A stretch of DNA of 64,000 nucleotides from Strigamia acuminata. Lineage: Eukaryota; Arthropoda; Chilopoda; Geophilomorpha; Linotaeniidae. Shown piece by piece: positions 3,976-61,676 of this stretch; positions within the stretch are counted from its first letter, which is position 1; the number at the start of each line of letters is the position of its first letter. A program made the position numbers and the translations under genes. The DNA is taken from positions 4,140,501 through 4,204,500 of the forward strand of contig OX442318.1 of NCBI GenBank assembly GCA_949358305.1. Reading direction: 5' to 3'. The notes beneath the pieces were generated by a model. That model saw only the letters and a list, made by a program, of their open reading frames with translations, was not told the origin of the DNA and made no database searches.

Positions 3976-3982
3976 TTCATTA
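3856..3982 (-). pseudogene. relic of channel exon 11 (second TM2)
   Basis: The minus strand reads NEFSYAPMISEA, stop, then IVEQFKYSFAALVSD, nearly identical to the same part of gene D exon 11. It has an in-frame stop and is cut off before the pore segment. It lies about 130 bp beyond the stop of gene E, so gene E transcription could run into it, but it cannot code. Confidence 0.75.
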
Positions 3983-18039: not shown

Positions 18040-18077
<38 letters not shown>

Positions 18078-21969: not shown

Positions 21970-24900
21970 TTAGTCGTTGTTATGTATTGTTGCCATTGCA
22001 AGGAAGAATGCAGTATTACAGAAAAAAGGTATAATGCCCAACACAGATAAGCCAAGAGTGAGGCTTAATGTGTTGCCAATGTCGGAAACTAATGCAACGA
22101 AAGAATATTTAAATTTTTCAGCAATAGTTTCTATTTTATTGGTAACAAAAGCAATATTAATAGTTGATATAGCGGAGAAGAAAGTAGCAGATCTATATTC
22201 GTTTATTTTATAGAATGGTTGTTTACAAGGTGGTTGACATAAACATTCCTTTTCAATGTCGGTGTTTGTCGGAATTTTGTAGTACAATGTTTGGACTGCT
22301 TTGGCTGTTGACGAAGAGTTGCAGAAGGCAACGTTTTCTTTAATTGCAAATGGCATGCTGCCATAAGTAAGAAAATGTTTGTCATTTGTAAACTTACTGT
22401 AAATATCTTTAACTTATACCTACCTGCACAATTGCTTTTTCTTCATTTCCTTGTCAAAGCACTGATTTTTGCAGTTGTAATATTCCGTTAAATTTGCATT
22501 GCATGGTTTAAATTTGGTGTTGAGACGATAAATCTGAGGTAAAAAAAAAATTATATTTAACTTACAAAAAAGTACTAGACCTCATCAGAGAGTACATTAA
22601 TAACTGATAGATGATGTTTTAGTGGTACGTACATTTCGTCTGGTAACCACAACAACTGTACTCATTGCAGATAGATAAGCTATATCTACATCGTACGAAA
22701 AACCAGAATTTTCCTTTGGAGTTAGGTAAACCTGAAATTGAAATACTCTCAAGCAGCATTTTTTACCACAGAAAATTTATGTTTTCAACTATCAAAAGTA
22801 AATGTGGAAGTCTAATTTGTTACTTATAATGTCGTGGAGCCAATTCAGTGTCCACGCTACTCCCTATTCAGCACTGCGATGCTCAGTTGTGAGGTGTTGG
22901 ATCTACCACAGCCTCCTTGAGTGGTTGCATGGGCCGTGCGTAAGTGTGGCAGAATAGTCACATACCGACCACGTCGCTCATGGGGATAATTTCTGTGCGT
23001 GACGGGTTGGTTGCTGGTGTGGTGTGCCCAAGCGACATTTCCAGCACGTGGGTACACTGGGAACTCCGACCCCTAGACTAACGATTAAAGGCCAACAACC
23101 CAACAATCTGGAGTTCTTGTCTTATTTAACGTGAGCATACAACCCACATTAGGGTAGCTCGTCCCTAAGTTGCCCTGGTTAAGACGTTGCAGTCACAATA
23201 AAAGTATTGTAAACTATTACTAGCTGACTCCAAATAAACAAAATGGCGGACCCGCTGGTCCGCGACGCACACACTAGCTTGTTAAATTCAAAGTGATCTT
23301 TATTCAAATCCAATCGGTTTAAATATTACAAAAGTTATCTCTCATTGGTTGACTACAAAAGAACAGCCCCCATTGGCTGTTTGTACTAACGTTCTCGAAA
23401 CGTTCTCGTCTCGATCCCGTTCTCGTTCTCGTTCTCGTCCTCGTAAACCCAAAAAACTCCACACTCGGTCATCCGACTAAATGTCGGCGTCCTCGCCGAC
23501 GCTTATCTTGTTTACAACTTCGTTTTCATCTGCGTTTACATCTCTGTGGTCGTCTGCGTTTACATCTTCGTTTCATCTGCGTTTACATCTGCGTTTACAT
23601 CTGCGTTTACATCTGCGTTTACATCTGCGTTTTCATCTTCTTGGTCATCTGCGTTTACATCTTCGTGGTCATCTGCGTTTACATCTTCGTGGTCATCTGC
23701 GTTTACATCTTCGTGGTCGTCTGCGTTTTCATCTTCGTGGTCATCTGCGTTTTTATCTGCGTTTTTATCTGCGTTTTCATCTGCGTTTTCATCTGCGTTT
23801 TCATCTGCGTTTTCATCTGCGTTTTCATCTTCTTGGTCATCTGCGTTTACATCTTCGTGGTCATCTGCGTTTACATCTTCGTCCGCATCTCGATTTGTTT
23901 CGCTCTTTTCATCAAAATCACCGTTTCTTCGTCTTCATCTCGAATCGTTTCGTCTTCATCTCGAATCGTTTCGTCTTCATTTTGAATCGTTTCGTCTTTG
24001 TCATCGTTTTTGTCATCGCCATTTAATTCATCGCTAACCCCATCGTTCGTCTCCCTCAAACCCGCACCAAACTCCCGCTGTTCCAGGTCAAGTTCGTTAG
24101 GTTGCGCATCCAACTTCGTATCAACTTCGACTGGACTCGCCTCAATCGCTTGCGTCGCATTAACGTCTACTCGTTTCGCATCTAGTTCCGCTTCTCCATC
24201 CGAATCGTCCGAATCGCTGCACGTGCGCCCGTCTATGCCACCCCGCATGTCGTAATTGCTCTTTCGCGCTTTGTCGTCGTTGGCTTCATAATCGCATACT
24301 TTCCTTTCGTAATTTAGCTTGAACCTTCTCGTAACACGTGTTGTCTCGGCAAATCGCTCGTCTGGATTCCCGAACCGTCCACGTGGTTCTTTGTCGTCCC
24401 CGAATTTCGCTTCCGTCCCAAAACAATCGTCGTCTCGTTTTTCTTCAACTTTTCGTCTATTCGTTTAGTCTCAGTCGCATAAATTCGTTTATCGCCGCAT
24501 AGAATTCTTCTATCGTCGCATAGGATCCTTCATCCCACTTCTGATGTAAACTTAGTTAAAAGTTGACTTCGAAAACAATGGCGGACCCGCTGGTCCGCGA
24601 CGCACACACTAGCTTGTTAAATTCAAAGTGATCTTTATTCAAATCCAATCGGTTTAAATATTACAAAAGTTATCTCTCATTGGTTGACTACAAAAGAACA
24701 GCCCCCATTGGCTGTTTGTACTAACGTTCTCGAAACGTTCTCGTCTCGATCCCGTTCTCGTTCTCGTTCTCGTCCTCGTAAACCCAAAAAACTCCACAGT
24801 ATACTTAGATTTAGTTTAGTTACTTACATGAACAAAATCTGGTTTGCAAATATCATTAGTCATTTCCATGACAGAATCTTGAAACATCGTGAACAATTTA

Positions 24901-27900
24901 AATTTTATAGGGCCTAATTAGGAAACAATTTATTCAAATATTTAGTTGTCAATCTTGTACTTATTAGTAAAGTTACCAAACGAATGCTTTACACAAATTC
25001 CATCTGGATGCGGGAGCTGATCTTGGGTTGAAACATCAAATAAGTCTCGTGGGAAAGGAGTCTGGGAAGTAAAAAGTGAGTTTAGTCGCAGAGATTTTAT
25101 TTTTTGCTTTTTTGCTGTTAGAATATTAGTACAAGTGCAGAAAAGCTTGTTGGTAATCAAGAAAAGGGTCAAAATGAGAATTAAGTAGGGGTCAAATAGA
25201 TGTTCAATGGAATTAAAATAAAGTTAGAACAAATCTTGTTAGCTTCTTCGCATAAACGAACAAGCGTTTTACGTACAATCGTGGATAAAAAAAACTTTCT
25301 AGCAGTTTAGCTGTTTTAAGTTTATCTACCAGGTGGCATAAAAATCCATTGTCTTGCCCTAACAACAGTATTAAAAGATGGACCAGGCAAATAATGATGT
25401 CATTAAATCTCAATGGATTTTATGACATCTAGTAGATAAGCTTAAACCTAAAACAGCTCTACTGACGGGAAGTCTTAGGATACTGAATTCACTTACGTAG
25501 CGGTATATGATTTCTGGACTTATTGCCGGCAAGGAAGCCATTTCCCACAGTTTATTAACTGTAAAATTGTTCCAGTTGACAAGGTCCAATATGTCTACAT
25601 TGCATTCTGTATATTCATGTTTTCGCTGTTTGAAATATTTTTTTTTGAAATTTACATATCTTGCATTATGTTGTCCTGCACAGACTATAATGTTTGGAAA
25701 AGTTATTTTAACTGGATCATCTATACGGATAGTTTGTTGAATTGGTTTGCTCAAGTAAAACTGAATTTTATGACAAATCAAAAATCCAGTGAACCCAAGC
25801 AAACAAACATAAACGAGGTAATAGGTCTTTTGCTTCAGGATTTGGGATTTTTGGAACCTTTGTGTTATTATTTGGTTGGCTCTAAAAATGGCTTCAATCT
25901 TTTTGGTCAAATGAGATTTGCGATTGGTTGGCTTCACCACATAGATTTTAAGAGATGACAAAATTAAGTTGAGTAAGGAAAGCAAAGAGAGTCCCAACCA
26001 AAGGCCAAGATTTCCACCAAAATCAGACAGGAGGCTGATTGAGTCATACAGAAAGCGTTCTTGCATAATGGTAATGTGATCGTACTTAAGGTAGGTGGAG
26101 ATTCCATCAATGCGATCACTGCTGTGTCCTAATTGAAATAAACCATCGATTTGTTTGCTTTCACAGCTTCTTATACAACCACAGTCAATCTCAGGGGTTG
26201 GCGCCACAATATCAAGTTTGTTTTTCTTGTACATTTTTAGTGTAATTTCAGAATTATTGCAGAGCTTGAGATTTCCTTTAGAATGCTTTGGCCTATAGGG
26301 TAACCTGTTTTTTTTTTTTGTTTTTTTTTTTAAAAAATGTTTTTAAGTTTATATCTCTTGTTGGCTATAAATTTTGTTTTCTTCTTACCAGCATTCGTTT
26401 TTGTCCAAAATATGTTCCATGCAATTTTTACTACATTCTAAATAAGTCTCCATTTTCACGCAAGGATGATTTTTGGTGTTGAGGAAACGATGCTGAAACA
26501 AAAGTAATTTTGAGATTATCATTCCCAGGAAGGCAGTAGTAGCAGTACAGAAACTCGTTAACGTGCGAACATCTGAGTTGCAAACTAAAGCTAGGTTTAC
26601 ACTTGTGTTCACATTAGACGCAACACAAGAAAACTTGACGCAATGCAAGCTGCTTGCATCCAAAAATTCTTGACGTTGACGCCAATTCCTGCTTCAACTC
26701 CAAGTTGAAGTAAGTGACGCAACGCTAGGAAAGGTCTTGCGGCCAATCAATCACGATCCACTTCAACTCTCGTCGATTCACGTCTGGTTGGCGAGACTTT
26801 GCCACATGCAAACAGGCCGCCATTTTCGGATTCTGAAACTAGTTCTAGAACTAGATCCAATTCCAGGTTTCATTAAAACCGTCTGATTGGCCAGACGCAA
26901 GATCAATTGTTTCAGCTCTGTTCACACCTGCCCTACAGTGTGAACAGACTCTGCATTGCATTTGATTAATTTTTCCTTGCGTCGCGTCTAGTGTGAACAC
27001 AAGTGTGAACTTAGCTTTATGCTGGAGGCGCACTAGGCGAATCGCCCAGCTATTTTGCCAGGCTAACACATCTGGCGATCGAAACGAAAAGTGCTGATAT
27101 TACGATGATATTTGGAACATACTATTGTGATCCAAAATAGAGGAGCCATTGTATCTTTACCGCTCTGAAATGAAATCCTAAGCTTGCATTGGTTTTTGAT
27201 GGTAGAGTAATTCCAAATTGAAAATCCAAAGGGTAGGTGATTGCAACCTGCAATGAAATTTAAGATATTAGTTGCAAGTACACGATTGCAAGCATGCAAG
27301 CTTCTTTTGTAATTTTTCTTGTCAGTGTGAAATTGCTCTACATGAAACTGTACAGTATGTGGGAACTCCAACCCAATCACAGTGAGTCACCAAAAGTGGC
27401 AAAAACAGGTTTGAACGAAAACTTTAGGCTGCTATATAGTACTTGATAGACATTTACTAGTGTCATCGCTACTCCTGGCTTCAATTCTTGTCTTCTTATA
27501 TCAACACTTGTTTTCATATATATTTCAGAACCTTTTAGTGGTCTTCCAACTGCGAGTGACAGTCAATTAATACTTTTAAGCAGCGAATACAGTAGGCGCA
27601 TTCATAAAGTCATTTAAACATGTTTATATTTTGGCCTACAACTACATCCTTAGAGGACCGTCCTTTTTGGTGGAAATGTAAACCAGCACCAGCAACGGAA
27701 ATATAGGGTGTCCCAAAATTAACGCAAGATTTGAATTTGCCGCCATTTGTGCCGTAAATTGTTGGCAACCCTGAAACAACTGAAACTACTATGCCTCTCT
27801 AAATTTTTTAAACTAGTCTAAATGTAAAATTGTACATGTTAAATTTTTATTTAAAAGTTTAAACAAATTTAAATGACTATAAATGCGCCCAGTGTAAGTA

Positions 27901-28535
27901 GTGTGGTCCCGACACACCATTGCTGACCTTTAATTCTGCTGCAAGTACCCCATGGATTTAATTCTTGTGTTACGGTCATGTTTATATGAACACGTATCTA
28001 CGAAATAATGAATTTTTAAACAGATTTTTCGATGCGTTTTATAAAAGAAATTACCTTCTGACGACGTCGCTCATCATACGAGACTAAATTATAAACTGCG
28101 TTAACATTGTCATTTATATTCCACAATTTAGTTAGATCGACATCCGGGTGTTCTATTAGTCCTTCCATTGGGCTCAGACAATCTCTCTCAACTGCTATTC
28201 TGCCAGATGAGTTGAAGTAATCCATCTCATACTGATTTACTGGTATACACACATGGCGATCCGGCAACTTAAACTCTTCAATCTTTTCTTCAAAGACATC
28301 AACTGCAGTTGGGCTTTCCAGATAATAGGATATGCGGTCGTACATTTGATAAGAGTAAATCAGAATGCAAATTGCAACAAGAATGGCCCAAAAAACACGA
28401 AATGCTAGCGAGTGATTTGCGACGTTTATTGGTCTAAACTCGCCTGGAATATTATTTTCTTCGTCTTGTGATTGCAATAAATTTCTTATTTCATGCCGAA
28501 GCCTTTTACGAGATAGGTGAGTCATTTTCAACATC
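21970..28535 (-). CDS. gene C: tandem two-module DEG/ENaC channel, 802 aa
   Basis: Coding exons: 28055-28534, 27928-27997, 27458-27549, 27161-27247, 26389-26492, 25497-26304, 24977-25061, 24828-24913, 22633-22731, 22424-22533, 21970-22357; 802 residues, all frames kept. Module 1 TM1 is AFRVFWAILVAICILIYSY with LPDRHVC after it; TM2 has GGNLGLWLGLSLLSLLNL. Module 2 TM1 is YYLVYVCLLGFTGFLICH with FPNIIVC; the last TM2 reads SLTLGLSVLG. Exons 5 and 10 both encode an L-N-T-K ... C ... Y-x-C-x-x-C block, visible homology between the two modules. The ATG at 28532-28534 is one base after an AACAG acceptor. Intron 8 (22732-24827) has taken a short LTR element and an LTR fragment; intron 4 holds a MITE. 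Confidence 0.9.
22830..23197 (+). mobile_element. 3' part of a TGTGAC...GTCACA LTR-like repeat
   Basis: Shares with 57925-58812 and 59840-60426 the blocks CCCTAGAC(A)AACGATTAAAGGCC, ACCGACCACGTC and the closing AGTCACA. The 5' half is missing or too diverged to call. Lies in gene C intron 8. Confidence 0.55.
23244..24798 (-). mobile_element. short terminal-repeat retroelement (TRIM-like)
   Basis: Two 220-bp direct repeats (23244-23463 and 24579-24798) are nearly identical over their whole length. Read on the minus strand they start TGTGGAGTTTTTTGGG and carry TTGAATAAAGATCAC, as LTRs do. The interior is 1.1 kb with a low-complexity acidic frame and no polymerase, so it could not move by itself. 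A related solo LTR sits at 29710-29964. A target-site duplication is not obvious at this copy. Confidence 0.65.
23500..24248 (-). CDS. acidic repeat-rich reading frame inside the TRIM-like element
   Basis: From Met 24246-24248 the minus strand gives a Glu/Asp-rich product (SDSDDSDGEAELDAKRVDV onward). The region 23520-23890 is a tandem array of 12- and 18-bp units whose minus-strand reading is made of E-D-V-N-A-D-D-H and E-N-A-D repeats, in a frame one step away from the upstream part. It is either a disrupted gag-like protein or non-coding repeat. No domain is recognised, and I would not expect a stable folded protein. Confidence 0.3.
26586..27019. mobile_element. MITE in gene C intron 4
   Basis: Inverted ends TAAAGCTAGGTTTACACTTG and CAAGTGTGAACTTAGCTTTA, followed inward by TGTTCACATTAGACGC and its complement. 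A second inner pair surrounds 26650-26930. Non-coding. Confidence 0.65.
27704..27780. repeat. dispersed 77-bp repeat, mariner-end-like
   Basis: Starts AGGGTGTCCCAAAATTAACG and ends GGCAACCCTGAAACAAC. A nearly identical copy is at 44452-44537 next to exon 1 of gene B. The GGGTGTCCCAAAA start is typical of terminal repeats of mariner-like elements. This copy is in gene C intron 2. Confidence 0.5.
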
Positions 28536-32160: not shown

Positions 32161-32775
32161 TGTTAAATTTGCATAAGTTTAAATCAATACAAATCTACCA
32201 AACAAATTTCCAAAGTCCTGGTTACAAGTGGATGAATAAAGTTGAGATGGTGGTGAAATTCAAAGATGGCGTTGGAGCAAAGTAAAAGCACAACCACACG
32301 TTTTAGAGGTAAAAGGTACACTGGTCTTTATTCAATTATTTACACAAAAGGAAAAAGTAAAGAATGCAGATGACACGCTCTGAGCACCAATGGAAACGGT
32401 GCACACAAATTTGGAAAAACCCCACCAATTAAAAGATTAACGTGGGGACAAGAACCTTGTACAAACTAGAACAGGTCAATACACTCAAATGACAAATGGT
32501 AATTAATAATAAAAGTGTTACATCTTCAAATCAAAACATAATATTGAAGCCTAAATATGAGAAACAATAAAATCAGCAAATCAATGTTAAATTCAAATCA
32601 AATATCAAAATCAATAATGTTATTATACAACACCTCAAAGCAATGTAAAAAATGGCAAATAAAATTACCCAATCACCAATATAGAAAGGAATAACAAATC
32701 AAGGTGGAAAATAGAAATACAAATGGCAATTTAAATAATGGTTTATTTAACCCGTAAAATCACCCGATTTTCACA
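32161..32775 (-). repeat. 3' LTR of the BEL/Pao element
   Basis: On the minus strand it begins TGTGAAAATCGGGTGATTTT and ends AAATTTAACA (TG...CA). The stop codon of gag-pol (32760-32762) lies inside its first 16 bases. Confidence 0.93.
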
Positions 32776-38048: not shown

Positions 38049-38083
38049 TTTGTTTAAATTGGATTAAATGGGAAATTAAATAC

Positions 38084-39347: not shown

Positions 39348-42300
39348 TTATTGACAAGAATTGTTGCAGATTTGTAAAAAAAAATGTATTCCAGTTAAGA
39401 CGGACAAACCGAGAGCGAGACTGAGAGTGTTGCCGATGTCAGAAACCAAGGCAACAAAAGAATATTTATATTCTTCAACAATTGTTTCTATCTTGTTTGA
39501 CGGGAAAACAAAAATAACGGATGTCGAATCAAATATCATTGGTGGTGCACTGAATTCATTGATCTTGTAGAACGCTTGTTTACAAGGACGATTGCACAAA
39601 CATTCCTTCTGAACATTGGTGTTGGTGCGTATTTCATAGTACAATGTTCGCACGGCTTTGGCTGTTGACGAAGAGTTGCAGAAAGTGAGGCCTTTCTTCA
39701 TTGCAAATGGCATGCTATTGGATGAATAAAATGATAAATAAAAATTAGGGTTAAGTTGTTGCATACTTGTGTGGGTTATTGTTTTACCTGCACAGTTGTT
39801 TGCTGTTCATTTTGTTTTGCAAACAGCGGCTTTTACAGATGTAATAGTCTGTTGTGTTTTGATTGCAGCTTTTGGATTTTGTGTTGAGAAAATGCATCTG
39901 GAGTTTAAATATATTTTAATAGTTTACAAGATCAAAGTCACGTGATTGAATTTATCTTTATACATTTTCTTTGGTTAACAAAGATGAGGTTAGCATTGAA
40001 GAAGGGAGCGCTGAATTGAAATCGTATGAAAAATTTGGATCTTCAACTGGTGTGATGTAAGCCTATTGTAAAAAATGTGCAAGTTTAGATTGTGTGGATT
40101 ATTTTGAACTTACGTATGTAAAATCCGGTTTGCATGAGGGGTCTTTCATTTCTGGTATATAATCTCCAAACATTGTGAAAAATCGATATTTTACAGGACC
40201 TGATTTCAAATATAAATTTTTAAATTCTGTTTTTATCTCTTTAGAAGAAAGAAAAATTACCGAAGGAATGTTTAACACATGTACCGTGTGGATTTGGGAG
40301 TGGAGTGTAAGTTCGAACATCAAATATGTCTCCGGAAAATGGATTCTGCAAATTTTAAAGCCAGGAGATAGAAATGCTAGCTCAAAAAAATCGAGTTTCA
40401 AATGGTTAAATTTACTTACAATCATGTTGATGATGCTAGAGCTTAAAGGTTCCAAATAGGCCGTTTCCCACAGTTTAGGTACTGTTAATCCGTTCCAGTT
40501 GACAAGATCCAATAAGTCTACATTGCATTTTGTGTTATTATGATTCTGTTGTTTGAAATATTTGGTTTTCTGGTTTATTAGTTTTCCACTATGCGATCCT
40601 GCACAGATGATGATGTTTGGAAAAGTTATGTTAGCTGGATCCTCAATTGCTACAATTGTTTGAATAGGTTCATTTAAATACAGCCTGATTTTTTGTTGGA
40701 GTATTGACCCACTGAATCCATACAAACAAAGATAAACCAGTGGCTGTAGACGAGCCATGTTAGATTTTGATGTATGAGTTTTTGGAGTTTTAATGGTTTG
40801 TATGTTAGCTTCAATTCTTCTGGTTATGTTGCTTTTAGGAGTTATACGCTTCGCCATGTACCACTGAACAATAACCAAAACCAGGTTGATTAAGGAGAGA
40901 AAAGAGAGTCCTAACCAAAGTCCAAGATTGCCACCAAAGTCAGCGACCAGGCTGATGAAATCGTAGATTAAGCGTTCTTTCACAATTGTCATGTGGATGT
41001 CAAGCAGGTGTATAGTATTTGAAGATATGTCACTTTCGCTACGTTCCATCCGAAATGTCGGATGAACATGTGTAATTTCACAGCTCCTGGTACAACCACA
41101 GTCAGGTTCAGGTGTTGGTGATACCATATCATTCATGTTTTGTTTAAACATTTTTAAAGTTTCTTTAGAATTATTACAGAGCTCAAGGTGATGTCCTCTG
41201 GAAAATCTTGGCATGTAGGGTAACCTGTCAAATATATTAAGATACCTCAGTAAGATTTTTAAGGAAAATTAGAACAGTGTTCAACATTGCAGTCATCTTG
41301 ATCATACTCTTAGGATGGAGGAACGTAAGGCCTAGTTTGTCGGTTTGAGGAACAATTGTGTTAAATGCTACAAATTGTATTGTTTGTTGTTGCTAGTGCT
41401 AATTGTTGGAAACTTTGTAAAACAAGCTCTTTTGAGAGTGCATCTGGTCTTTTATTGTTTGCAATTAATGTATTTCGTAATTGACTTGCCAACAATGATT
41501 TTTGCCCATTAATGTTTCAGTGCATCTTTTGCCACATTCTACGTATTCCTCGAGTGGTACACAGGGCTGACTTCTGGTGTCTATTAAATGATGCTGAAAC
41601 ATAAATATTTAGTAAGTCAATAACAGAATCCACCTGAACAAATTTAACAGTCACCTCTTTTAAACGGAATCCAACTTTGGTATTCGTTGAAGCTGATGTT
41701 ATCGGATATCCATATTGGAAATCAAATGGGAATGTCACTCCTATCTGAAATTAAGCATATTGAAATCATCAGTTCTCAATTCACTAAAATAATCCACTTT
41801 TTGTCATCGACTGGTTGTTTTGCCAGGCCCGTTTCTGGAGTATTGTGCGCTTTTTTGCTTGTGGTACCATCAACCCACTCCTACATGCTAAGCTTAGAGA
41901 GGGTGTGAGGCAGGGAATTTGGAGGGAGTTTCTCCCTTTCTTAGTTTTAGAAATTTGTGATTTTGGATCATAGTTTTGGATTGGTGTTGAGGGTTTGGGG
42001 CAGGGGGCGGATTAAACTTTTAGGGGGCCCGAGAAAAATCTTTTTCTGGGTCCCTTGTAGCAAAAACTAAAACCGTATAATTAATTTTCAGGCCTAACAT
42101 TGGATTTCCCAGCGAAACATTGGATTTCCCAGCGTAACATTGGATTTGCCAGTGTAACATTGGTTTTTCTGGCTTAAAATTTGTATTTCTATGGCCTAAA
42201 ATAGGATTTTCCAGCATAACATTGGTTTTTCAGGCTTAACATTTGTATTTCTCTGGCCTGAAATTGGATTTTCTGGCCTGAAATTGGACTTTCTGTCCTG

Positions 42301-44436
42301 AAATTGGATTTTCTGGCCTGAAATTGGACTTTCTGGCCTGAAATTAGATTTTCTGACCTGAAATTGGATTTTCTGGCCTGAAATTGGATTTTCTGGCCTG
42401 AAATTGGATTTTCTGGCCTGAAATTGGATTTTCTGGCCTGAAATTGGATTTTCTGGCCTGAAATTGGATTTTCTGGCCTGAAATTGGATTTTCTGGCCTG
42501 AAATTGGATTTTCTGGCCTGGAATTGGATTTTCTGGCCTGAAATTGGATTTTCTGGCCTGGAATTGGATTTTCTGGCCTGAAATTGGATTTTCTGGCCTG
42601 AAATTGGATTTTGTGGCCTGAAATTGGATTTTCTGGCCTGAAATTGGATTTTCTGGCCTGAAATTGGATTTTCTGGCCTGAAATTGGATTTTCTGGCCTG
42701 AAATTGGATTTTCTGGCCTGAAATTGGATTTTCTGGCCTGAAATTGGATTTTCTGGCCTGAAATTGGATTTTCTGGCCTGAAATTGGATTTTCAGGCCTG
42801 AAATTGGATTTTCTGGCCTGAAATTGGATTTTCTGGCCTGAAATTGGATTTTCTGGCCTGAAATTGGATTTTCTGGCCTGAAATTGGATTTTCTGGCCTG
42901 AAATTGGATTTTCTGGCCTGAAATTGGATTTTCTGGCCTGAAATTGGATTTTCTGGCCTGAAATTGGATTTTCTGGCCTGAAATTGGATTTTCTGGCCTG
43001 AAATTGGATTTTCTGGCCTGAAATTGGATTTTCTGGCCTGAAATTGGATTTTCTGGCCTGAAATTGGATTTTCTGGCCTGAAATTGGATTTTCTGGCCTG
43101 AAATTGGATTTTCTGGCCTGAAATTGGATTTTCTGGCCTGAAATTGGATTTTCTGGCCTGAAATTGGATTTTCTGGCCTGAAATTGGATTTTCTGGCCTG
43201 AAATTGGATTTTCTGGCCTGAAATTGGATTTTCTGGCCTGAAATTGGATTTTCTGGCCTGAAATTGGATTTTCTGGCCTGAAATTGGATTTTCTGGCCTG
43301 AAATTGGATTTTCTGGCCTGAAATTGGATTTTCTGGCCTGAAATTGGATTTTCTGGCCTGAAATTGGATTTTCTGGCCTGAAATTGGATTTTCTGGCCTG
43401 AAATTGGATTTTCTGGCCTGAAATTGGATTTTCTGGCCTGAAATTGGATTTTCTGGCCTGAAATTGGATTTTCTGGCCTGAAATTGGATTTTCTGGTTTA
43501 AAATTGAATTTTCTGGTTTAATTTTTTTTCTTGGTTCAAGATCTAACTGAGACAAAGCAGTCATAAATATTTACAAAAAGGAGAGACCAATGTTGGCACT
43601 CGGAGGGAAGAGTATTTACTAGGGTTATGGATGGTCCTGGTATCAATTCTGGTATTTTAAAATCGTTTTGTAATCTTGTACTCATTTCCGAACCATGCAG
43701 TATATTTCTTACTGTAATTGAAAGCTGAATGTAACTTATTTAAAAATGTCTACAGTAATTCTGGCAACTGACCTTTCAATCTGGTACATGTACCTCTTGG
43801 CATTAATTCTAATGTCAGAGTGTAGTTCAGAGGAAAGGGTGTCTGAAATTACAATAGAAGAGGTTTACATTAAATATTAACGAATAGTCACAATCTGAGA
43901 AAAATTTATTGGCAGATTTGTGCCAAATGGATGATCCATAAACATCCAGTTATAAACTTACTTTACGATGTGTTTCTGCATATGTAAGTACACGCTGAGT
44001 TATATGGAAACTGTAGTTTAAATTCCATAATTTAGTGAGATCAACATCTGCTCGTGTTATTAATTTATCCAAAGGATTCAGAGCATCTGTTTGAAGTATT
44101 TCTTCTCCGAGCATCTTGTAGTAATCCACAACATACTTATTTAGTGGTATACATGTGTGTGTATCAGGAACTGGAAACTCTTCAATTTCTCTTTCGTAGA
44201 CGTCAAGTCCTTTTGGACTGGACAGATAATAAGAAATGCGGTGATACATTTGGTACGAATAAATGAGAATGCAGATGACGACTAGAAGAGCCCATAAAAC
44301 ACGAAATAGAATATTGCGATTCTTATCGATCATTGGGTGAAATTCTTGAGGGAATGCGCTTCTTTGGTCTTCTTCCGTTATTAAATGTTTTACTATTGTG
44401 CGAATTCTTTTTCGGATTCGATGATTAGCCATGACA
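39348..44436 (-). CDS. gene B: tandem two-module DEG/ENaC channel, 792 aa
   Basis: Coding exons: 43962-44432, 43773-43842, 43620-43711, 41655-41744, 41490-41593, 40420-41224, 40261-40345, 40114-40199, 39964-40062, 39788-39897, 39348-39714; 792 residues. Approximate residues: basic cytosolic N-terminus 1-40; TM1 41-62; FPVPDTHTC 86-94; cysteine-rich ectodomain ending in DCGCTRSC (about 316-323); TM2 371-393 with GGNLGLWLGLS; cytosolic linker 394-434; second TM1 435-456; FPNIIIC 476-482; second ectodomain with ECLCNRPC; second TM2 about 758-782 with LGLS. Family members conduct Na+ or mixed cations as plasma-membrane trimers; the gating stimulus cannot be read here. The His-Gly pair usual before TM1 is not seen in either module. 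Exon 5 uses a GCAAGT donor. The ATG is four bases after a TTTTACAG acceptor. Confidence 0.92.
42085..43530. repeat. 20-bp minisatellite in gene B intron 3
   Basis: The unit GAAATTGGATTTTCTGGCCT is repeated about 63 times from 42240 to 43500 with only a handful of base changes; degenerate related units extend to about 42085. Because 20 is not a multiple of 3 and the unit has no stop in minus-strand reading, a 406-codon open frame runs through it, but it lies wholly in an intron and is not evidence of a gene. Confidence 0.95.
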
Positions 44437-52977: not shown

Positions 52978-55900
52978 CTAATGTCGGTTAAATAGAGCAA
53001 CATACTTCTTCTGAACAAAAGGTAGCGTTTGGTCACATAAGATGTGCACTAGAATGAGCAAAGAAACTCCAAGGGTGAGGCTTAAGGCATTTCCAACGTC
53101 GGAGACCAAATTTCCGAACGAATACAAAAATTCTTCTTTTACGAACTCAATCTTATTTGTGTACATGTTGAATCCTACAACTAAGAAAGTCACAACATTG
53201 TTCGGATCAGTGAATGTGGTAAATTTGTAGGTCAATATCTGACAGGGTCGTGGACATGTGCATTCCTTTTCAACATCGGTTGATGAATGGATTTTGTAAT
53301 ACAATGTGCGCACATCTTTGGCCATGGATGAAGAATTGCACTGAATCATGTTCTCCTTGATGGCAAAGGGCATACTAGCAAAAACAATGCAAAAATATCG
53401 GTAAATTATTGATGAATATGTTATTGACTGCAGGTTTTCTTGTGACGATGTTGATGTGGAGGTATCGTCTTTTGAGTGCAGGGATAGGCGATCATATTTT
53501 GGTCACGCTAGCCACCAATGGCCCCATGCATCAGTATGGGGATCACTTCTTGGTGATTAGAGGACATGCACTAGAAAAAATATGGCTTTAAACGTCTTTT
53601 AATTGCTGATAAGTTAATGTAAACTTGAACCTTAAGCTTTGGAAAGGCAGATTGTAAACTTTTGTTTGAAACACTAGCTGCATTCAAAAACTCTAAAACG
53701 CCTCTAAAAGTCGTTTCGTGTCTGTACGTGTGACGTCATTCCTATTGAATAACATGGGAATGACGTCACATGTGCAGACACGAAACGAGTTTTAGAGGCG
53801 TTTTAGAGTTTTTGAATGCAGCTAGTAACTTTACAAAATTAAAAAGACAATTTACATTAAACACGCACAATAACATAACAGTTTTTAAATTTTAAATTTG
53901 TCGGTTTTTATTATAAATTTAATTTTAATTCAATTTTAATTTAAAATTAAAAACTTTAAAAATGTGGTTTTAAATTTCTAAATTCATGGCTTAAAACAAT
54001 AATTCTCATAAAAATAATTTCCATGAAAATAATTCCTATAAAAATAAAATCCATGAAATTTTCATAAAAATCGCACACATCGATAAGATATGTAGAGGAT
54101 TTGTAGCCTCGATAAAAATTTTTAGAAAAAGAAGGCAATGATACAAGCTAGCATTGATGTCATGATGATAAACCCATACAATAACTTTCCAAGTCACTTA
54201 ATTTGTATTCGTGACAGAAATAAACATACTTGTCTTGTACAATCAACCACGCGATTGCCTTTTCTTTCTTTCACTTACATATACACATGAATTTTTGGAT
54301 TATTTATAATTCTTAAAGCCATATTTTATTCCAGTGATGGTAGAATTTAGACTTTCATTCAGTTAGATTTACACTTGTGAATGTATTCATTAATTGAGTA
54401 GATTAATAAAGAAAGTGTGTTCACTTTATTAACACACAAATATCTGACCTGCAGTGTTGAAGTTTTTTGACTTTGTTTTCCAGACAGTTTTGTTTGCAAT
54501 GGTAATATTCACTCGTATTTGAAGTACATGGGTTCTGAAGGGTGTTTAAGTGTTGCATCTGACATACATTAAATCACAACATGTTATTTATCATACATTA
54601 AACTGATGATCTCTTGCCCATTTTATTTACCTTTAATATTTTAAATAAAATGATTGTTACATGTGAAGAGGGAAGTTCTATTTTGTATGTATTTGGAAAA
54701 TTAGGATCTCCAGGTTGTCTGAAATAGATCTGAAATAAAACAGGAAAGCTATTTTGACTGAAAACTTGACAATTGAAATTATCCTTACATTTGAGACGTC
54801 TGGTTTGCAAATGTTATCCACTTCATATGACGCAATTACAGCCTGGGACATTAATGAATACTTTCTTGGTCCTTTCAAGTTTGAAAAATTATTTAGAAAA
54901 TGGCATTAAAAGATTCATGTCATGGGTAATTACCAAATGAATGTTCCATGCAAACACCATCCGTGTAGTTTAATGTGGTCATGATACTTTTATAAATTTC
55001 ATAACGCCCATACTGAAAAATTTGTACAAGTCAATAAGACAGTGGCAGTATGGATGTTGTGATTTTTTTTAAATTTTGTAATTTGTCATTGTCTTTTCAA
55101 ATGCTTTTATTTAACTTGACTTGAATGGGTGTGTTTGTTTTAACTTTCGGTTTTGGTAATTTGTCTGAAAATGTCAGTAGTTGTGGGTGTCGACTTCGCG
55201 GTACCATTATATCAACGAACGGGACAAAAAAGTTATATTGCTTTGTTTACTTGTGCACTGACATGTGCGTTACATCTTGAACTGACTACTACAATGAGTA
55301 CCGAGGATTTTTTTATGTCTTTGCAGCGATTTTTTTCTCGAAGAGGTGTGCCAAGCGTAATTTACTCGGACAACGCCAAAACGTTTAAGCATGCGGACTT
55401 GGAATTGAAAGTTTTAATGAACAATATTTGTAGGCAAGAAATCAGTGGGTATTTAACAAAAAATAGATTAGAATGGAAGTTCATAGTGGAAAGGGCAGCC
55501 TGGTGGGGTGGGATTTTGGGAGAGAATGCTTCGGTCTGTGAAAACATGTCTAAAAAAGATTTTAGGGAAGCAACTTCTCACCCTTGAAGATCTTAACACA
55601 GTATTGTGCGAAGTGGAAGCCATGATCAACTTGCGACCGATATCAGATGTTTACGGAAACACGAATGAGCGAGAGACCTTAACACCCTCACATTTTTCGG
55701 TGGGGAAACGACAGGTGACACTTTCGAGCACTCATCTACTCGACACGAAAAATTTACTGTCCTATTCTACAGAACTTTTTTGAAGTGCTGGAAATTGAGA
55801 GACAGAGTGATGAAACAGATTTGGGCTAGATGGAGAAGGGAATACTTGAATGAACTTAGGGTCTTTTAAACGACCCGAGAACGGAGGGTGTTGCAGAGAG

Positions 55901-58900
55901 ATGATGTGGTTCTCATACAAGATGAGAACCAACCTCGTTCAACGTGACCAATGGGACAAGTAATCGAGGTATTTCCGGTAAGAGACAGGAGAATACGATC
56001 CTGTGAAATTCGCCTAGCCAGCGGCAAATCGTTAAAGCAACCAATTCAGCGATTGGAGTGACACGGAGAAGTTGTTGAAAGGATAATCGACGGGGCCCAA
56101 TGTGAAAATTGAAGAATTTTATAATTGATGGTTATTTTTAGGAGAAAATTGTTTTTGGGATTTTTGGGAGGAAATTGAAGTTTTATTGTGTGTTTTTACT
56201 CAGAAATTGTAACTGTCACCAGATGTGGTGACGTTGGTCATTGTGTGAGGTTTTTGAACCCTTTTGTGTCTTTTGTTTTCCTTTCCTGGAATTCCCTCCC
56301 CCTTTTTCTTTATAACCATAATTTTGAACGAGAATAAACTTGTGCCTTTAAGAAGATGGTTGTCTTTCTTTAGCTGCTGCTAAAATACTGTAACTGCATT
56401 CACCGTCAAAAAGGGGACTCTTTTTGACAAACCAAAAAACTGAACAATTTTTCGAGACTGATTTTATTACTAGTTTCTTGTGGGATTTCACACTCTACTT
56501 CAGGTCCCATTCAATTTAACTTGTATTTTTTTTAAAGTAAACAACTTACCGATGCTGTAATTACTTCATGGTCCAGCTCAGCAGTTTGAAATTCTTCACT
56601 CCAAAGCGTCTCTATGTCGATTTCATTGTAATGAATAAGATCATAAGCGTCTACTTCGCAATTAGTTGAGTTCATCTTGAAGAACTGATCGAAATAGAGT
56701 TTCTTATTGTCATTAAGTTCTCCACTATGTGGCCCTGGACAACCAATGATGTTGGGAAATGTGACGACCGCAGGGTCTTCAATCTTGACTGCTTTCTGAA
56801 TGGGTTCTGATAAATATCTGTTTATACGACTTTGTAGAATATAACAACTGAATAGAGTGCAGCTAAAATAAATTGCATAAATCCATTTGCTTTTGTTTAC
56901 TGATTTTTCCATTTCTATTTTTTGAGCAAACATTTTGAATCGTATTTTGTGTTTGTTGTAATGTTTTTCGAATTCGTTAATGATGCTGTTACGGTTGTTC
57001 CTTTGCCGTCCTTTGGTTCTTTTTGCACAATCAATTAGACAATCAAGTAGAGAAAGTAGCGAAAATCCCAACCAAAGACCGAGATTCCCACCAAAGTCGC
57101 AGAGTAGACTGATTAAGTCATAAAGCAGTCTTTCTTGAAACACGGTTATGTGTTGATCAACTAGGCCTAAATTGAACCGCACTTTGTTTGTTTTTATTTC
57201 ATCTACTCGAAAATCGTAAACTTCATTTTTACAGCTTCTTGTACAGTTGCAGTCATAGGTTGGTGTTATTCCTGTTACTCTCTTCTTGTGTTTCATTACC
57301 AAGTAGTGTTTGTCCTCAGCAGATATGTTGCAGAGTTTGTTGCATGGCCTCAGAAATGAATACTGTATGCTAATAGTTAAATACCACAATAATTCTAATT
57401 TTTAGGTTAAAGCAACGAAGGTGCAACCTCATTAAGGAATATCATATTTTTGTGATAAAGATACTTTGAGAATTTACCACTAGCTACGTCTATAAATAAC
57501 TACGAATGAGTTTAGGCCTAACAAAACAACAATCGTTCTCCTGACAATCCCGACGCGCACAACAAACGGCTTTTGATGTCTCATTGGTTCTTACCAAGAA
57601 GAAATTCCTCTTGCCGTGCATAATTCTCAATTCTCAATTTTGTTCTCTTGCTACTAGCGCCACCTGTTGAGGCTTTACAAACAAAGCATCAAAGGTCACT
57701 ATCTCATTTTCACTATCTCATTTTCACTATCTCATTTTCACTATCTACGTTATTTTATATCGGTAAATTCTCGTATAAAATACACCTCATGCTTGAGTAA
57801 TTGTCGAGATTAGGTGAGCACTCATCTTCTTGTCAGATAAGATCACTCGTGCCCGCTTATCAGGCAAGAAGATTCACGCTGACCTAATTATCCCGTTGAT
57901 TACACATAGCGCTTAGTATATTACTGTGACCGCTTGGCCACCCCTGGTCACCTGCGTCACTCCAAACACCGCCTAGTGGCTTCAAGCCTTCCCCCTCACG
58001 GAGTGGACTGGCCTAGCAAGGGAGGAGGGAGCTGAGTGGTGTGGTCAGAGAGAGACATTGCTGGGAGAGCAGGGGGTGAAGACGTGCAGGGTGAGCTGCC
58101 ATGGTCCTAACTACAGGGTAAGTACGGCAGAATGTTCATCCGAAGTAACCGGCCACGTCACCCATGGGACTTACCGTATATCCCCGTGTATAAGCCGCCC
58201 GATTTATTCCAAAAATTGGACCTCTGATTGGGGGGGTCGGCTTATACGCGCGAAATAAAAAAAAACAAAAAAAAAACGTACGTACAACGTTCGTTACGTT
58301 TTGTATCGACCAACCATCAAACAATTTCATTCATTTTTTACTAAATTGTAGTCAATTTCATCCATTTTTGAAAAAATTGTAGTCAATTTCATCAATTTTT
58401 TACTAAATTGTAGTCAATTTCATCAATTTTTTTACTAAATTGTTGTCAATTTTATCAATTTTCGACTAAATTTCACAACATTTTGACGTACTCGGCTTAT
58501 ATGCGGGAATACCATTTATCAGCAAAATGGTGCCTCAGAATGGGGGGTCGGCTTATACACGGGTCGGCTTATACACGGGTCGGCCTTATACACGGGGATA
58601 TACGGTAGGTTCTGTGTGTGACGGGACAGTTGCCGGTGTAGCGTGCCTAACAGCACTGCCACACAGTGAGATAGGTGACCCCACCCCTAGACAACGATTA
58701 AAGGCCAAAACCCAACAATGTGGAGTTCCTTTCTCGATATTACGTGATGTATGCGTCACTCCCATTGTAGTAAATCCCCATACTGCAGTGGGTAAGATCA
58801 TATCCAGTCACATTACCACTGAAAATTGTTTTATTTAAATATGCAAAAGCAACCATCACTTCTCAATATCAACACATAGGGATAATTTGTAATTGAAAAT

Positions 58901-61676
58901 CTTTATTTATTGTTGTATTTCTTCGATACAAAGATGCACTTTTTTCCCAAATAACCCAGTCTAAAAGTGAGGGGTATGTTTTTTAATTGCACGTTTTCGC
59001 ACATTTTTCCGAGCAGCACGTTTTTCATTTGGAAACGTCGTAGCAATGTACTGTATCACAGGCTGATGAATCAGGTTCACTGATTCAGAGGACAAGATGA
59101 ATAAAATACCTGTACGTGTGGGTACATTTTGAACAAACTTTTTTCTCATTGTTTAAATTTAGTGTTTTCTCTTATTATTGAAATAAAAATGTAAAAAATA
59201 TTACAAATATATGTGCCTTACCAACAGGGATCGTCCGTAAACTTTTGTTCAGTGCATCGTATACCACACGATATAAACTCATCGTTTGGTACACATGGTT
59301 CATTTTTTGTGCTTAAAAAAGAATACTGGAAAGAAATTACATGATACAATAGTCTCTGAAATGACTTCTCCAAACAGGATATGATGTTTGTACATCATAT
59401 CTCTGAGACGTCAACTCAAAACAATTCACATAATAGGATTAAGATTAAGTTAGCTATTGCTACAATACAATAGGGGGTTTCATTATATGAATGATTTTGC
59501 AATTTTGTGATTTTGCATTAATCACAAAATCATTAATTTTTGATTCCTCCAAAAATGGGATTACATTGAATTAACCCAGTCAATTTTGCAATTGTGTGAT
59601 CTGGACAACTTTGTGATTTTTGAGTATTGTCATGTGATATTTGTTCTACCAATCACATTTACATTCACTAAAGTACAAGAGAGTGAAAACACAAAATCCC
59701 AAAAACATCTAAAAGGTGGTTTTTGTGAAATTTTGCATTTCAGTTATACGTATTTCCAAAATATTTTATGGAAGAAAATCTAATTTTTTTTGCAGTGTAC
59801 CTTTGATTTTGTGATTGTGTATTTTTTCTCTTTTGTGTTTGTGACCGTCAGGCCACCTGGGGTGACCTACGTCACTGCCACACACCACCATACGGCCCCA
59901 AGATCACCCCCTGATTGGGCAAGGTGATCTACCCCGGGGGAAGGAGGGAGCTGAGTGGTATGGGGAGGAGTTGCAGAGAGAGAGAGTGCGGATACCGACC
60001 AGGCCGGTCGTGTGTTGACAGAGTTCCAGGGTGTTGTAGTAGACGAGGGGACAAGACGTGTCCCGGCTGAAGAGGACTCTGCACTCCTTCCCATTCACCA
60101 CAGCGATGCTCAGTATCTGGGTTCGCCACCCAATACAGCCTCCATGAGTGGTCACTGCGGGCTGTAGGTAAGTACAGCATGAATGTAATGTTGAACCGAC
60201 CACGTCACCCATTGGGCTCGCGCCCAGTGTGTGACGGGTCGGTTGCCGGTGCGGCGTGCCTTCGTGGCACCCCTGCAACGGGTAACGGGATTCCCCATAC
60301 CCCTAGACAACACAATAAAGGCCAACCAACCAATATTGTGGGATTCCCCGTTATTTACGTGAAGTATGCGTCCCTACCCAGTGTTATCAGTCCCCTGACT
60401 ACACTGGCGAGACCATAGCAGTCACATGTTTTTGCAATTATGCACATGATTGGTGGAACTGATACCACGTGACAAATTCAAAAGTGCAAAATTGCTAAAA
60501 TTGCAAAATTGCCTTAATTAATGAAACCCGCTATTGTTGGTAGCCGTATATTTGGGCAGGTCAGTATTGAGTTAGTTCAATCGAGAATTCACTTCTTTAA
60601 GTGATTTAAGCAGAAGACAATTTGTCTTTTGAGGATTGAATGCACTTAATGTTAAAATAATTATTTTATTTTCATGTTACTAAACGTTATTGAGAACCCA
60701 TAGTCATTATTTTTACTTGTGTAACGGTGAAGCCAATGGATGGTTGAATGTTTGCAGGTACTCGCAGATAGATTGCAAAATCAAACGGTACATCAATTGA
60801 GACCTAAGATGGATTTTGTAAACTACAGTCTCAAATACAGAATAAATATTAAATGTATTTTATACGCCATCTGGTTGAAACGGGCTAGGCATTTCCAATT
60901 TCATTGTCATTCTAAGCTCAGAATGTTCCAATGACCTGTTAACTATGTAACAAATATAATACAGAATAGTTTACACAACAAAATAATTTGGCAATTTTGT
61001 ATTCCATTCTAAGCTAAATGCTGCGTCTCTAATACTTAACTGTTTACTTGCATACATTTGCCATAAGGTGTAGTTCTGTCTTTTTGATGAAACCCCAATG
61101 GTAAGTTTGGCTATGACAACATGCAAAAATGAAATTGAGAAACGGATATAAAAACCTGCACTTTACTTTGTAGTTAGCACTCCCGAATGTCAGCGTTACA
61201 ATTAAATCAATAGGGTCGTTTAAATCTGAACCTTCTGACCAATCTAAATTAAATATTGTTTAGAGTTTGGACCGATCTTCATTTTTTTGTTTCAAATGCT
61301 TTGTTGATTAAGTTTTACCGTCTGTGCAAATGGACGCTGGTGGGAAATGAAAGTGTTCCAATTCTTTCTGATGTACATTAACAGACTTTGGTTCTCCCAA
61401 GTAGAATGAGATGCAATTATACATTTGGTAGCAATAAGTGAGAGAACAGATAACGACAAGAAATGCCCAAAAAATACGAAATGTGTACGAACGTGAGCCG
61501 TCTAGGAGAATATGAAATTCTGGAGCTACATTTTTATCTTTCTCGATGGCCTCAATGATTGAAGATGTTATTAAATGGCGATGTTTTTTGAATCCGCGTT
61601 GAATGAGCAGGCGATGTCTTCTGACACCGTATTCATTGAGCTGGCGATGGCTTCCGATTCTGTATTGATTAAGCAT
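52978..61676 (-). CDS. gene A: tandem two-module DEG/ENaC channel, 778 aa
   Basis: Coding exons: 61319-61676, 61167-61234, 61056-61110, 60866-60942, 60717-60803, 59222-59325, 56550-57369, 54934-55012, 54789-54871, 54631-54729, 54449-54558, 52978-53374; 778 residues. The most divergent member. Its first ectodomain is shorter, and an 84-bp intron (61235-61318) inside the part homologous to exon 1 must be removed to avoid two stops; this is an inference from GTAAAA/GGTCAG signals and frame. Module 1 TM1 is FRIFWAFLVVICSLTYCYQM; TM2 is GGNLGLWLGFSLLSLLDC. Module 2 TM1 lies in KWIYAIYFSCTLFSCYILQS, then FPNIIGC; last TM2 is SLTLGVSLLILVHI. G-x-S is kept in both. Exon 6 starts with C at 57369, giving Cys where the others have Trp at the junction. 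The ATG follows an ATCTAG acceptor. Introns hold several retroelement insertions. Confidence 0.85.
53674..53825. mobile_element. hairpin MITE in gene A last intron
   Basis: CTAGCTGCATTCAAAAACTC and GAGTTTTTGAATGCAGCTAG are perfect inverse copies, and nearly the whole 152 bp pairs with itself around a short loop at ATTGAATAACA. Relative of 13382-13543. Confidence 0.7.
55153..56105 (+). pseudogene. BEL/Pao integrase remnant in gene A intron
   Basis: VVVGVDFAVPLYQRTGQKSY with IALFTCALTCALHLEL, then FFSRRGVPSVIYSDNAKTF and KFIVERAAWWGG show the integrase core with its two Asp. A frameshift near 55510 moves the FWERMLRSVKTCLKKI part to another frame, and the C-terminal piece is stop-ridden. It belongs to a different BEL lineage from the element at 32161. 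Confidence 0.8.
56209..56429 (+). mobile_element. probable 3' LTR of the BEL remnant
   Basis: TGTAACTGTCACCAGATGTG to TTTTTGACA, with GAATAAACTTGTGC inside, lies directly after the integrase remnant where a 3' LTR would be. No second copy is in the window to fix the ends. Confidence 0.45.
57925..58812 (+). mobile_element. TGTGAC...GTCACA LTR-like repeat with a MITE inside
   Basis: TGTGACCGCTTGGCCACC to CCAGTCACA, with 4-bp duplication TTAC at 57921-57924 and 58813-58816. Removing the MITE at 58174-58605 leaves about 450 bp collinear with 59840-60426. Has GGTAAGTACGG and ATTAAAGGCC. In the gene A intron between coding exons 59222-59325 and 56550-57369. Confidence 0.7.
58174..58605. mobile_element. 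MITE with CCGTATATCCCCGTGTATAA ends
   Basis: CCGTATATCCCCGTGTATAA at the left is mirrored by TTATACACGGGGATATACGG at the right, flanked by TA (58172-58173, 58606-58607). The interior has about five units of a 31-bp repeat around TTTACTAAATTGTAGTCAAT. A partial relative is at about 15180-15275. Confidence 0.75.
59840..60426 (+). mobile_element. TGTGAC...GTCACA LTR-like repeat, full copy
   Basis: 587 bp from TGTGACCGTCAGGCCACC to GCAGTCACA, with TGTT duplicated at 59836-59839 and 60427-60430. Contains a purine-rich stretch (GAGAGAGAGAG), a splice-donor-like TAGGTAAGTACAG and ACAATAAAGGCC. These fit a solo LTR. In the gene A intron between coding exons 60717-60803 and 59222-59325. Confidence 0.7.

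What the first reader, a model, noticed from the sequence alone, without database searches (positions are those of the whole stretch)
39348..44436. Channel proteins made of two DEG/ENaC modules in one polypeptide
Seen: gene B splices in frame into 792 residues with TM1-ectodomain-TM2-linker-TM1-ectodomain-TM2; four paralogues do the same. In each, TM2 of module 1 and TM1 of module 2 are in one uninterrupted exon. Known: DEG/ENaC subunits have two TM segments and assemble as trimers. I know of no described family with two fused modules. Inference: this would be a naturally concatenated channel.
Basis: partly seen in the sequence, partly recalled or inferred. Interest (0 to 1): 0.93.

Follow-up and report, generated by a model that had tools for sequence, protein, structure and literature searches.

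The report
Centipede channel genes with fused subunits
A centipede carries a very large family of genes that each seem to encode two sodium-channel subunits joined in one protein, a fusion that evolution appears to have made once and then copied many times, probably for sensing.

Summary
Confirmed at sequence level. Gene B (39348-44432, minus strand) splices into 792 residues with two DEG/ENaC modules; each half passes Pfam ASC alone (3.9e-22, 1.3e-17). Four paralogues in the window do the same (gene A less cleanly), as do further genes elsewhere in this genome (Strigamia acuminata, a centipede) and one S. maritima protein of 805 aa. At least 295 distinct open exons join TM2 of module 1 to TM1 of module 2. 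Of the 73 intact ones most like gene B, 69 have matching first and last exons in order. Intron phases repeat in the two halves (0,1,0,0,2 twice). Distances among first halves and among second halves agree (r 0.963, 0 of 2000 permutations as high). So one old fusion of tandem single-subunit genes was copied as a unit. Nearest solved structures: single-subunit centipede channels BRTNaC1 (heat) and PDPNaC1 (protons, antenna). Best reading: naturally concatenated cation channels, probably sensory. No RNA, current or stoichiometry data were available; the AlphaFold model failed (mean pLDDT 45.5); other centipede orders could not be searched.

The parts
43962..44432 (-). Gene B exon 1: N-terminus, TM1 of module 1, start of ectodomain 1
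43773..43842 (-). Gene B exon 2 (module 1 ectodomain)
43620..43711 (-). Gene B exon 3 (module 1 ectodomain)
41655..41744 (-). Gene B exon 4 (module 1 ectodomain)
41490..41593 (-). Gene B exon 5 (module 1 ectodomain), GC donor
40420..41224 (-). Gene B exon 6, the fused exon: end of ectodomain 1, TM2 of module 1, linker, TM1 of module 2, start of ectodomain 2
40750..40860 (-). Linker between the modules (37 codons), basic
   Evidence: boundaries chosen by eye in the alignment; coordinates worked out from them
40261..40345 (-). Gene B exon 7 (module 2 ectodomain)
40114..40199 (-). Gene B exon 8 (module 2 ectodomain)
39964..40062 (-). Gene B exon 9 (module 2 ectodomain)
39788..39897 (-). Gene B exon 10 (module 2 ectodomain)
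39348..39714 (-). Gene B exon 11: end of ectodomain 2, TM2 of module 2, stop
4110..9007 (-). Gene E, double-module paralogue, 805 aa; fused exon 5525-6338
12166..19013 (-). Gene D, double-module paralogue, 800 aa; fused exon 14306-15110
21970..28525 (-). Gene C, double-module paralogue, 799 aa; fused exon 25497-26304
52981..61676 (-). Gene A, double-module paralogue, 12 exons in the model, 5' part uncertain; fused exon 56550-57369

Best explanation
Each gene makes one polypeptide that is a natural dimeric concatemer of DEG/ENaC subunits: cytosolic N-terminus, TM1, ectodomain and TM2 of module 1; a basic cytosolic linker of about 34-44 residues; then TM1, ectodomain and TM2 of module 2. It arose when the last exon of one single-subunit gene was joined in frame to the first exon of its tandem neighbour, most likely once, and the double gene was then copied as a unit into hundreds of copies (seen here in Strigamia only). 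Inferred: the two modules of a chain sit side by side in one trimeric cation channel, and the third seat is filled by another module (a single-subunit DEG/ENaC or a module of a second double chain). Inferred: the family works as stimulus-gated sensory receptors.
For: Spliced models of B, C, D, E with intron phases 0,1,0,0,2 in both halves. ASC in each half alone for B and for the S. maritima protein. The two halves of one gene are homologous: C, D, E and P0001 align over 349-397 columns at 20-23%, D with E-value 1.3e-14; B over 182 columns only. Fused exon open in one frame at 295 distinct places. Linker open in 31 of 31 aligned rows (rows with stops had been dropped: L028), while the other two frames carry a stop in 29 and 28 of 31; dN/dS in the linker 0.71 over 15 disjoint pairs, 0.53 and 0.52 beside it. 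69 of 73 intact gene-B-like fused exons have exon 1 upstream and exon 11 downstream. Second halves group together in the tree (92/93), first halves less firmly (76/64); distances of the halves agree, r 0.963 over 45 pairs of ten genes. An 805-aa S. maritima prediction has the same layout. G-x-S is seen in TM2 of both modules in 11 of 11 proteins inspected (module 2 ends also). Linkers hold 283 K+R against 55 D+E. Engineered ASIC concatemers with 19-residue linkers form functional trimers (PMC10329638 passages). Closest solved relatives are centipede channels with sensory roles.
Against: No transcript spanning exon 6 was seen. A Met lies in the last 15 linker residues in 28 of 31 rows, and AATAAA/ATTAAA in the TM2-linker DNA of 12 of 31 rows, so separate messages are not excluded by these signs. 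Linker constraint is weak (0.71). S. maritima also has a 514-aa prediction, P0002, without the fused exon. The HG motif (recalled as common in the family) is not found before either TM1 in the window genes. The sensory role rests on relatives and family shape only. AlphaFold gave no usable model.
Confidence: 0.75

Rival explanations
1. Alternative splicing between matching introns makes ordinary two-TM subunits the main product. Because both halves use the same phases, joining exon 1 to exon 7, or exon 5 to exon 11, keeps the frame and gives a one-module chimera; the double frame is a minor form.
For: Same phase series in both halves. S. maritima prediction P0002 (514 aa) joins the exon 1-4 part of module 1 to the exon 7-11 part of module 2 and lacks the fused exon.
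Against: P0002 joins non-matching parts, which looks like a prediction error. The linker, of no use in skipped forms, is open in 31 of 31 rows and under weak constraint.
Confidence: 0.1
2. The two halves are separate messages: a poly(A) site and a promoter lie within exon 6.
For: Met near TM1 of module 2 in 28 of 31 rows; poly(A)-like hexamers in 12 of 31.
Against: The frame runs from module 1 into module 2 without a stop at 295 places (chosen for lack of stops; 14 of the 142 transcribed places have a stop or are partial). Linker length stays at 34-44 aa. The halves are co-inherited.
Confidence: 0.05
3. The fused protein is real but is not a channel by itself: one module has become a regulatory or trafficking partner, or the whole is a non-conducting sensor.
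For: Module 1 evolves faster than module 2 in 6 of 6 pairs of B-E (dN/dS 0.41-0.75 against 0.27-0.38; pairs not independent). Module 2 has a single G where module 1 mostly has GG before the pore triplet. HG motif not found in the window genes.
Against: G-x-S is kept in both modules in 11 of 11 proteins; dN/dS is below 1 in both halves.
Confidence: 0.08
4. A decaying array of pseudogenes whose frame survives by youth.
For: 14 of 142 transcribed exon-6 places carry a stop or are partial; gene A needs an unusual intron.
Against: The layout is kept down to 26-30% identity in exon 6 and in another species; splice sites, phases and frame are intact in B, C, D, E.
Confidence: 0.02

Closest known systems
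BRTNaC1 (broad-range thermal receptor 1, PDB 8ymr; single-subunit DEG/ENaC of the centipede Scolopendra)
   Same: Best solved-structure match of the S. maritima double (whole protein E 2.6e-12) and of its module 2 alone (9.7e-9 for entry 8ymw, residues 45-392); similar size per module.
   Different: One module of 431 aa per chain against two modules in about 800 aa; function of the doubles unknown.
PDPNaC1 (PDB 9jf7; proton-gated channel of centipede antennal neurons, PMC12714832)
   Same: DEG/ENaC of 421 aa from a centipede, matched by the whole protein (3.5e-8) and by module 2 (6.5e-6); intron-rich gene.
   Different: Single module, nine exons, homotrimer (abstract, passages and section 7 seen).
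Engineered ASIC concatemers
   Same: Subunits joined tail to head by a cytosolic linker; 19-residue linkers in ASIC2a/3 trimers (PMC10329638 passages); trimeric and tetrameric ASIC1a concatemers functional (PMC4529235 abstract).
   Different: Man-made and of three or four subunits; here natural and of two.
Single-module DEG/ENaC genes of the same genome (L002, L003, L008)
   Same: TM1 exon ends in phase 0 and the last intron is phase 2, as in each half of a double, 3 of 3.
   Different: One module: stop 33-40 residues after GGN and no hydrophobic segment in the open frame before the TM1 exon model, 3 of 3; middle exons were not modelled cleanly.
Pickpocket (ppk) family of insects
   Same: Arthropod DEG/ENaC family with sensory members (salt, water, pheromones; PMC7067487 passages).
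   Different: Two TM per protein and far fewer genes (both recalled).

Membership tests
DEG/ENaC (Pfam ASC, PF00858) | Match to the ASC profile above the curated cut-off, per module | tested here: met
   B module 1 79.3 bits, module 2 64.5; P0001 module 1 72.4, module 2 50.5; cut-off 23.6
DEG/ENaC (Pfam ASC, PF00858) | Two TM segments per polypeptide | tested here: not met
   Four hydrophobic segments per chain, two per module, read from the alignment of spliced proteins; so a double variant, not an ordinary member
DEG/ENaC (Pfam ASC, PF00858) | G-x-S pore triplet in TM2 | tested here: met
   Both modules of 11 of 11 proteins inspected (module 2 ends also)
DEG/ENaC (Pfam ASC, PF00858) | Cysteine-rich ectodomain | tested here: met
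   Invariant Cys columns in both modules of a 7-sequence alignment
DEG/ENaC (Pfam ASC, PF00858) | HG motif before TM1 (recalled as common) | tested here: not met
   Not before either TM1 in the 5 window genes; one distant double, L042, has HG just before TM1 of module 2
DEG/ENaC (Pfam ASC, PF00858) | Trimeric, amiloride-sensitive cation channel | not testable with these tools
   Needs expression and electrophysiology; AlphaFold model unusable
Centipede channels of the BRTNaC1/PDPNaC1 type | Closest relatives among solved structures by sequence | tested here: met
   (S. maritima double as query)
Centipede channels of the BRTNaC1/PDPNaC1 type | One module of about 420-430 aa per chain | tested here: not met
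   Two modules, 792-805 aa
Chemoreceptor-like expanded gene family | Large tandem arrays with some broken copies | tested here: met
   36 intact fused exons on the minus strand of C6 3.72-4.33 Mb (counted); 295 in all; 14 of 142 broken or partial
Chemoreceptor-like expanded gene family | Lineage-specific expansion | tested here: inconclusive
   Only Strigamia proteins were found, by a search of limited sensitivity; no other centipede genome was on hand
Chemoreceptor-like expanded gene family | Expression in sensory neurons | not testable with these tools
   No RNA data for Strigamia on hand

The most novel reading that the evidence does not exclude
A new receptor class: several hundred naturally concatenated channels, each with a faster-evolving first module and a more constant second module as a built-in partner subunit. 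One chain would do what insect receptors do with a tuning subunit plus a shared co-receptor, and the two-module chain would force an assembly (double plus single, or two trimers bridged by three double chains) not described for any DEG/ENaC that I know of. It would be a main sensory repertoire of these centipedes.
Probability: 0.3. Interest if true: 0.95.

Novelty: new variant of a known kind. Interest (0 to 1): 0.86.

Why it matters
Voltage-gated sodium and calcium channels are thought to have arisen by joining subunits (recalled); no natural joined form of the trimeric DEG/ENaC channels turned up in the ten paper searches run here. Two modules do not divide evenly into three seats, so the family makes assembly a direct question. 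With at least 295 open fused exons it would exceed the DEG/ENaC families known to me (recalled) and suggests an overlooked sensory system in centipedes. Chipman et al. 2014 list 'sodium transport' among functions enriched in S. maritima lineage-specific duplicates (PMC4244043 passage); this family may be the reason (inference).

Tried and rejected
AlphaFold of the S. maritima double (P0001) with 17 rows: mean pLDDT 45.5, so no fold search was run. Protein searches with gene B, with a profile of seven doubles and with a region of P0001 found only two Strigamia proteins; the word-based filter is blunt, so this does not show absence elsewhere. A Met in the linker was tried as a test of separate translation of module 2; it did not help the one-chain reading, since 28 of 31 rows have one. 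Poly(A) hexamers decided nothing (12 of 31). The first splice model of B (GT donor at exon 5) broke the frame; the GC donor gives an open frame, is also used in D, while C and E have GT there. Models of distant doubles rest on one template each, and some middle exons are doubtful (L040, L041; L043 lacks most of module 1).

Counts. The 31 exon-6 rows are 27 of 30 fetched loci (L028 dropped for one stop; L023 and L024 as copies) plus window genes A, C, D, E; B was dropped as a copy of L009. Gene D is in twice (as L016 and D), so 30 genes; D was left out of the dN/dS pairs. Coordinates were copied by hand. One row (C6:3877334, with stops) was left out, so 142 of 143; rows with stops or partial cover were not put into the 295, and at least one spanning row (C1:5857155) was missed. 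The searches score only the best candidates, so counts are lower bounds; but a few places share identical scores on different contigs (C4 and C50, C1 and C32) and could be assembly or haplotype copies.
Full report
What was checked. Genes C, D and E give 799, 800 and 805 aa with the same 11 exons. Gene A fits with one additional intron in exon 1 and is less certain at its 5' end. In 5 of 5, one exon of 805-820 nt holds the end of ectodomain 1, TM2, a linker, TM1 and the start of ectodomain 2.

Two modules. Pfam ASC matches spliced B, C and D at 2.3e-37, 3.2e-36 and 1.6e-37 (E and A were not scanned). Cut in two, modules 1 and 2 of B match at 3.9e-22 and 1.3e-17, and those of the S. maritima relative at 4.9e-20 and 2.2e-13. 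The two modules of one gene align with each other: C, D, E, P0001 and L042 over 349-397 columns at 18-23% (D with E-value 1.3e-14), B over 182 columns at 26%. Their introns have the same phases in the same order, 0,1,0,0,2 and again 0,1,0,0,2, in B, C, D and E. That is what tandem duplication of one gene followed by fusion would leave. Single-module genes in the same genome (L002, L003, L008) end the TM1 exon in phase 0 and enter the TM2 exon in phase 2, 3 of 3. They stop 33-40 residues after GGN, and the open frame before their TM1 exon model shows no hydrophobic segment, 3 of 3. The fused exon (805-814 nt in B-E) is about as long as a last exon (367-391 nt) plus a first exon (471-501 nt) without their ends, so the join added little.

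Where it is. The assembly is Strigamia acuminata qcStrAcum1.1: its longest scaffold, 66,985,994 bp, equals contig C1 here (PMC10556566 section 5). The window is C6:4140501-4204500. Its congener S. maritima is called blind in the abstract of the genome paper (passage).

How many. The fused exon of B matched 143 places in the genome; 142 were transcribed, 128 intact and 14 with a stop or partial. Of the 73 intact ones in the upper 79 rows (identity about 35% or more), 71 have a first-exon match upstream, 71 a last-exon match downstream and 69 both, on the same strand within 15 kb with no other fused exon between. Of the 55 more distant intact ones only 19 have both; the short query exons may be too distant for them, so for these the full layout is not shown. 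Two searches with fused exons of distant families raise the total to 295 distinct intact places, on contigs 1, 3, 4, 5, 6, 8, 9, 11, 32 and 50. A few may be assembly copies. Ten genes of this genome were spliced here (A-E, L039-L043); the distant ones show the same order of parts, with doubtful middle exons in some, and module 1 of L043 is mostly missing.

Is it one protein? No transcript data were available. The linker frame is open in 31 of 31 aligned rows (one further row with a stop had been dropped), and the other two frames hold a stop in 29 and 28 of 31. The linker's dN/dS over 15 disjoint pairs is 0.71, against 0.53 and 0.52 in the parts beside it: constraint, but weak. Linker length is 34-44 aa. 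In a tree of 24 rows the second halves form one group (92/93) and the first halves another, less firmly (76/64), and their branching is nearly the same. Distances among ten genes agree between halves, r 0.963, 0 of 2000 permutations as high. So the halves have travelled together since before P0001 of S. maritima parted from its relatives A and L039. P0001 (T1ITL7_STRMM, 805 aa), predicted by others, matches gene B at 35% over 98% of it. Against this: 28 of 31 rows have a Met within the last 15 linker residues, 12 of 31 a poly(A)-like hexamer, and a second S. maritima prediction (P0002, 514 aa) leaves the fused exon out. The last may be an error or a sign of exon skipping, which matching phases would allow.

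How it may work. The 31 linker rows hold 283 K+R against 55 D+E, which fits a cytosolic loop (positive-inside rule, recalled). G-x-S is seen in TM2 of both modules in 11 of 11 proteins inspected (module 2 ends also), so both could line a pore. In laboratory ASIC concatemers a 19-residue linker seats neighbours in one trimer (PMC10329638 passages), so 34-44 residues should do. Two modules per chain do not fill three seats: the third must come from another chain, or three chains must make two tethered trimers. A report of tetrameric ASIC1a exists (PMC4529235 abstract), which two double chains would satisfy; the trimeric centipede relatives make this less likely. Module 1 differs more than module 2: dN/dS 0.41-0.75 against 0.27-0.38 in 6 of 6 pairs of B-E, and a larger distance in 32 of 45 pairs; pairs share genes and are not independent. 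This suggests a variable and a more constant module.

Relatives and role. Among solved structures the best match of P0001 is BRTNaC1, a thermal receptor (2.6e-12), then FaNaC1, PDPNaC1 and ASIC5; module 2 alone matches only BRTNaC1 and PDPNaC1 at E up to 1. PDPNaC1 is a homotrimer of 421 aa in antennal neurons of Scolopendra and responds to protons (PMC12714832 abstract, passages and section 7). The S. maritima genome paper lists 'sodium transport' among functions enriched in lineage-specific duplicates, beside glutamate receptors and taste (passage), and its main text has no occurrence of 'degenerin' or 'sodium channel'. Array layout, copy number, broken copies and these relatives make a sensory role likely, but it is inference.

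Novelty. Ten paper searches listed no title or abstract start that describes a DEG/ENaC protein with two channel modules. Beyond the listings I saw passages, sections or abstracts of seven papers (PMC4244043, PMC10556566, PMC12714832, PMC12804983, PMC10329638, PMC4529235, PMC7067487). The library is partial. Two-domain ASC entries may exist in public databases for other animals (possibility recalled, not tested). I call it a new variant of a known kind: the modules are ordinary, the chain is not.

Noticed in passing
window 32763-38063 (-): BEL/Pao-type retrotransposon frame of 1767 codons: Peptidase_A17 2.8e-46, DUF5641, DUF1759, Integrase_H2C2, and weaker rve and RVT_1.
   Followed up: partly
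window 16711-17758 (+): Two open frames (120 and 165 aa) that look like a Tc1/mariner-type transposase (by eye, recalled), within intron 3 of gene D.
   Followed up: no
window about 42240-43500: Long array of a 20-bp unit (GAAATTGGATTTTCTGGCCT) inside intron 3 of gene B, seen in the raw sequence; it is open in several frames and gives long ORFs of no meaning.
   Followed up: no
window 41489 (gene B intron 5), 15349 (gene D intron 5), 5524 (gene E intron 6): GC-AG introns with GCAAGT donors; intron 5 has a GT donor in C and E.
   Followed up: partly
window 52842-52922 (-) and 3902-3981 (-): Pieces resembling the last exon just downstream of genes A and E, perhaps relics of broken copies.
   Followed up: no
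window 55144-55780 (+): Open frames that look like a retroelement integrase core (by eye), inside an intron of gene A.
   Followed up: no
P0002 (S. maritima T1IS61_STRMM): A 514-aa prediction that joins the exon 1-4 part of module 1 to the exon 7-11 part of module 2: a likely prediction error, or an exon-skipped form that matching intron phases would allow.
   Followed up: partly
L043; C3:1.5-4.8 Mb: A separate divergent cluster of fused exons: 24 intact copies at 56% identity or more to L043 on C3; matches to other families in that search are 24-38% identical where they span the exon.
   Followed up: partly
C4:12025851 and C50:22925; C1:5396613 and C32:58165: Fused-exon matches with identical scores on a chromosome and on a small contig: assembly or haplotype copies, or very recent duplicates.
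   Followed up: no
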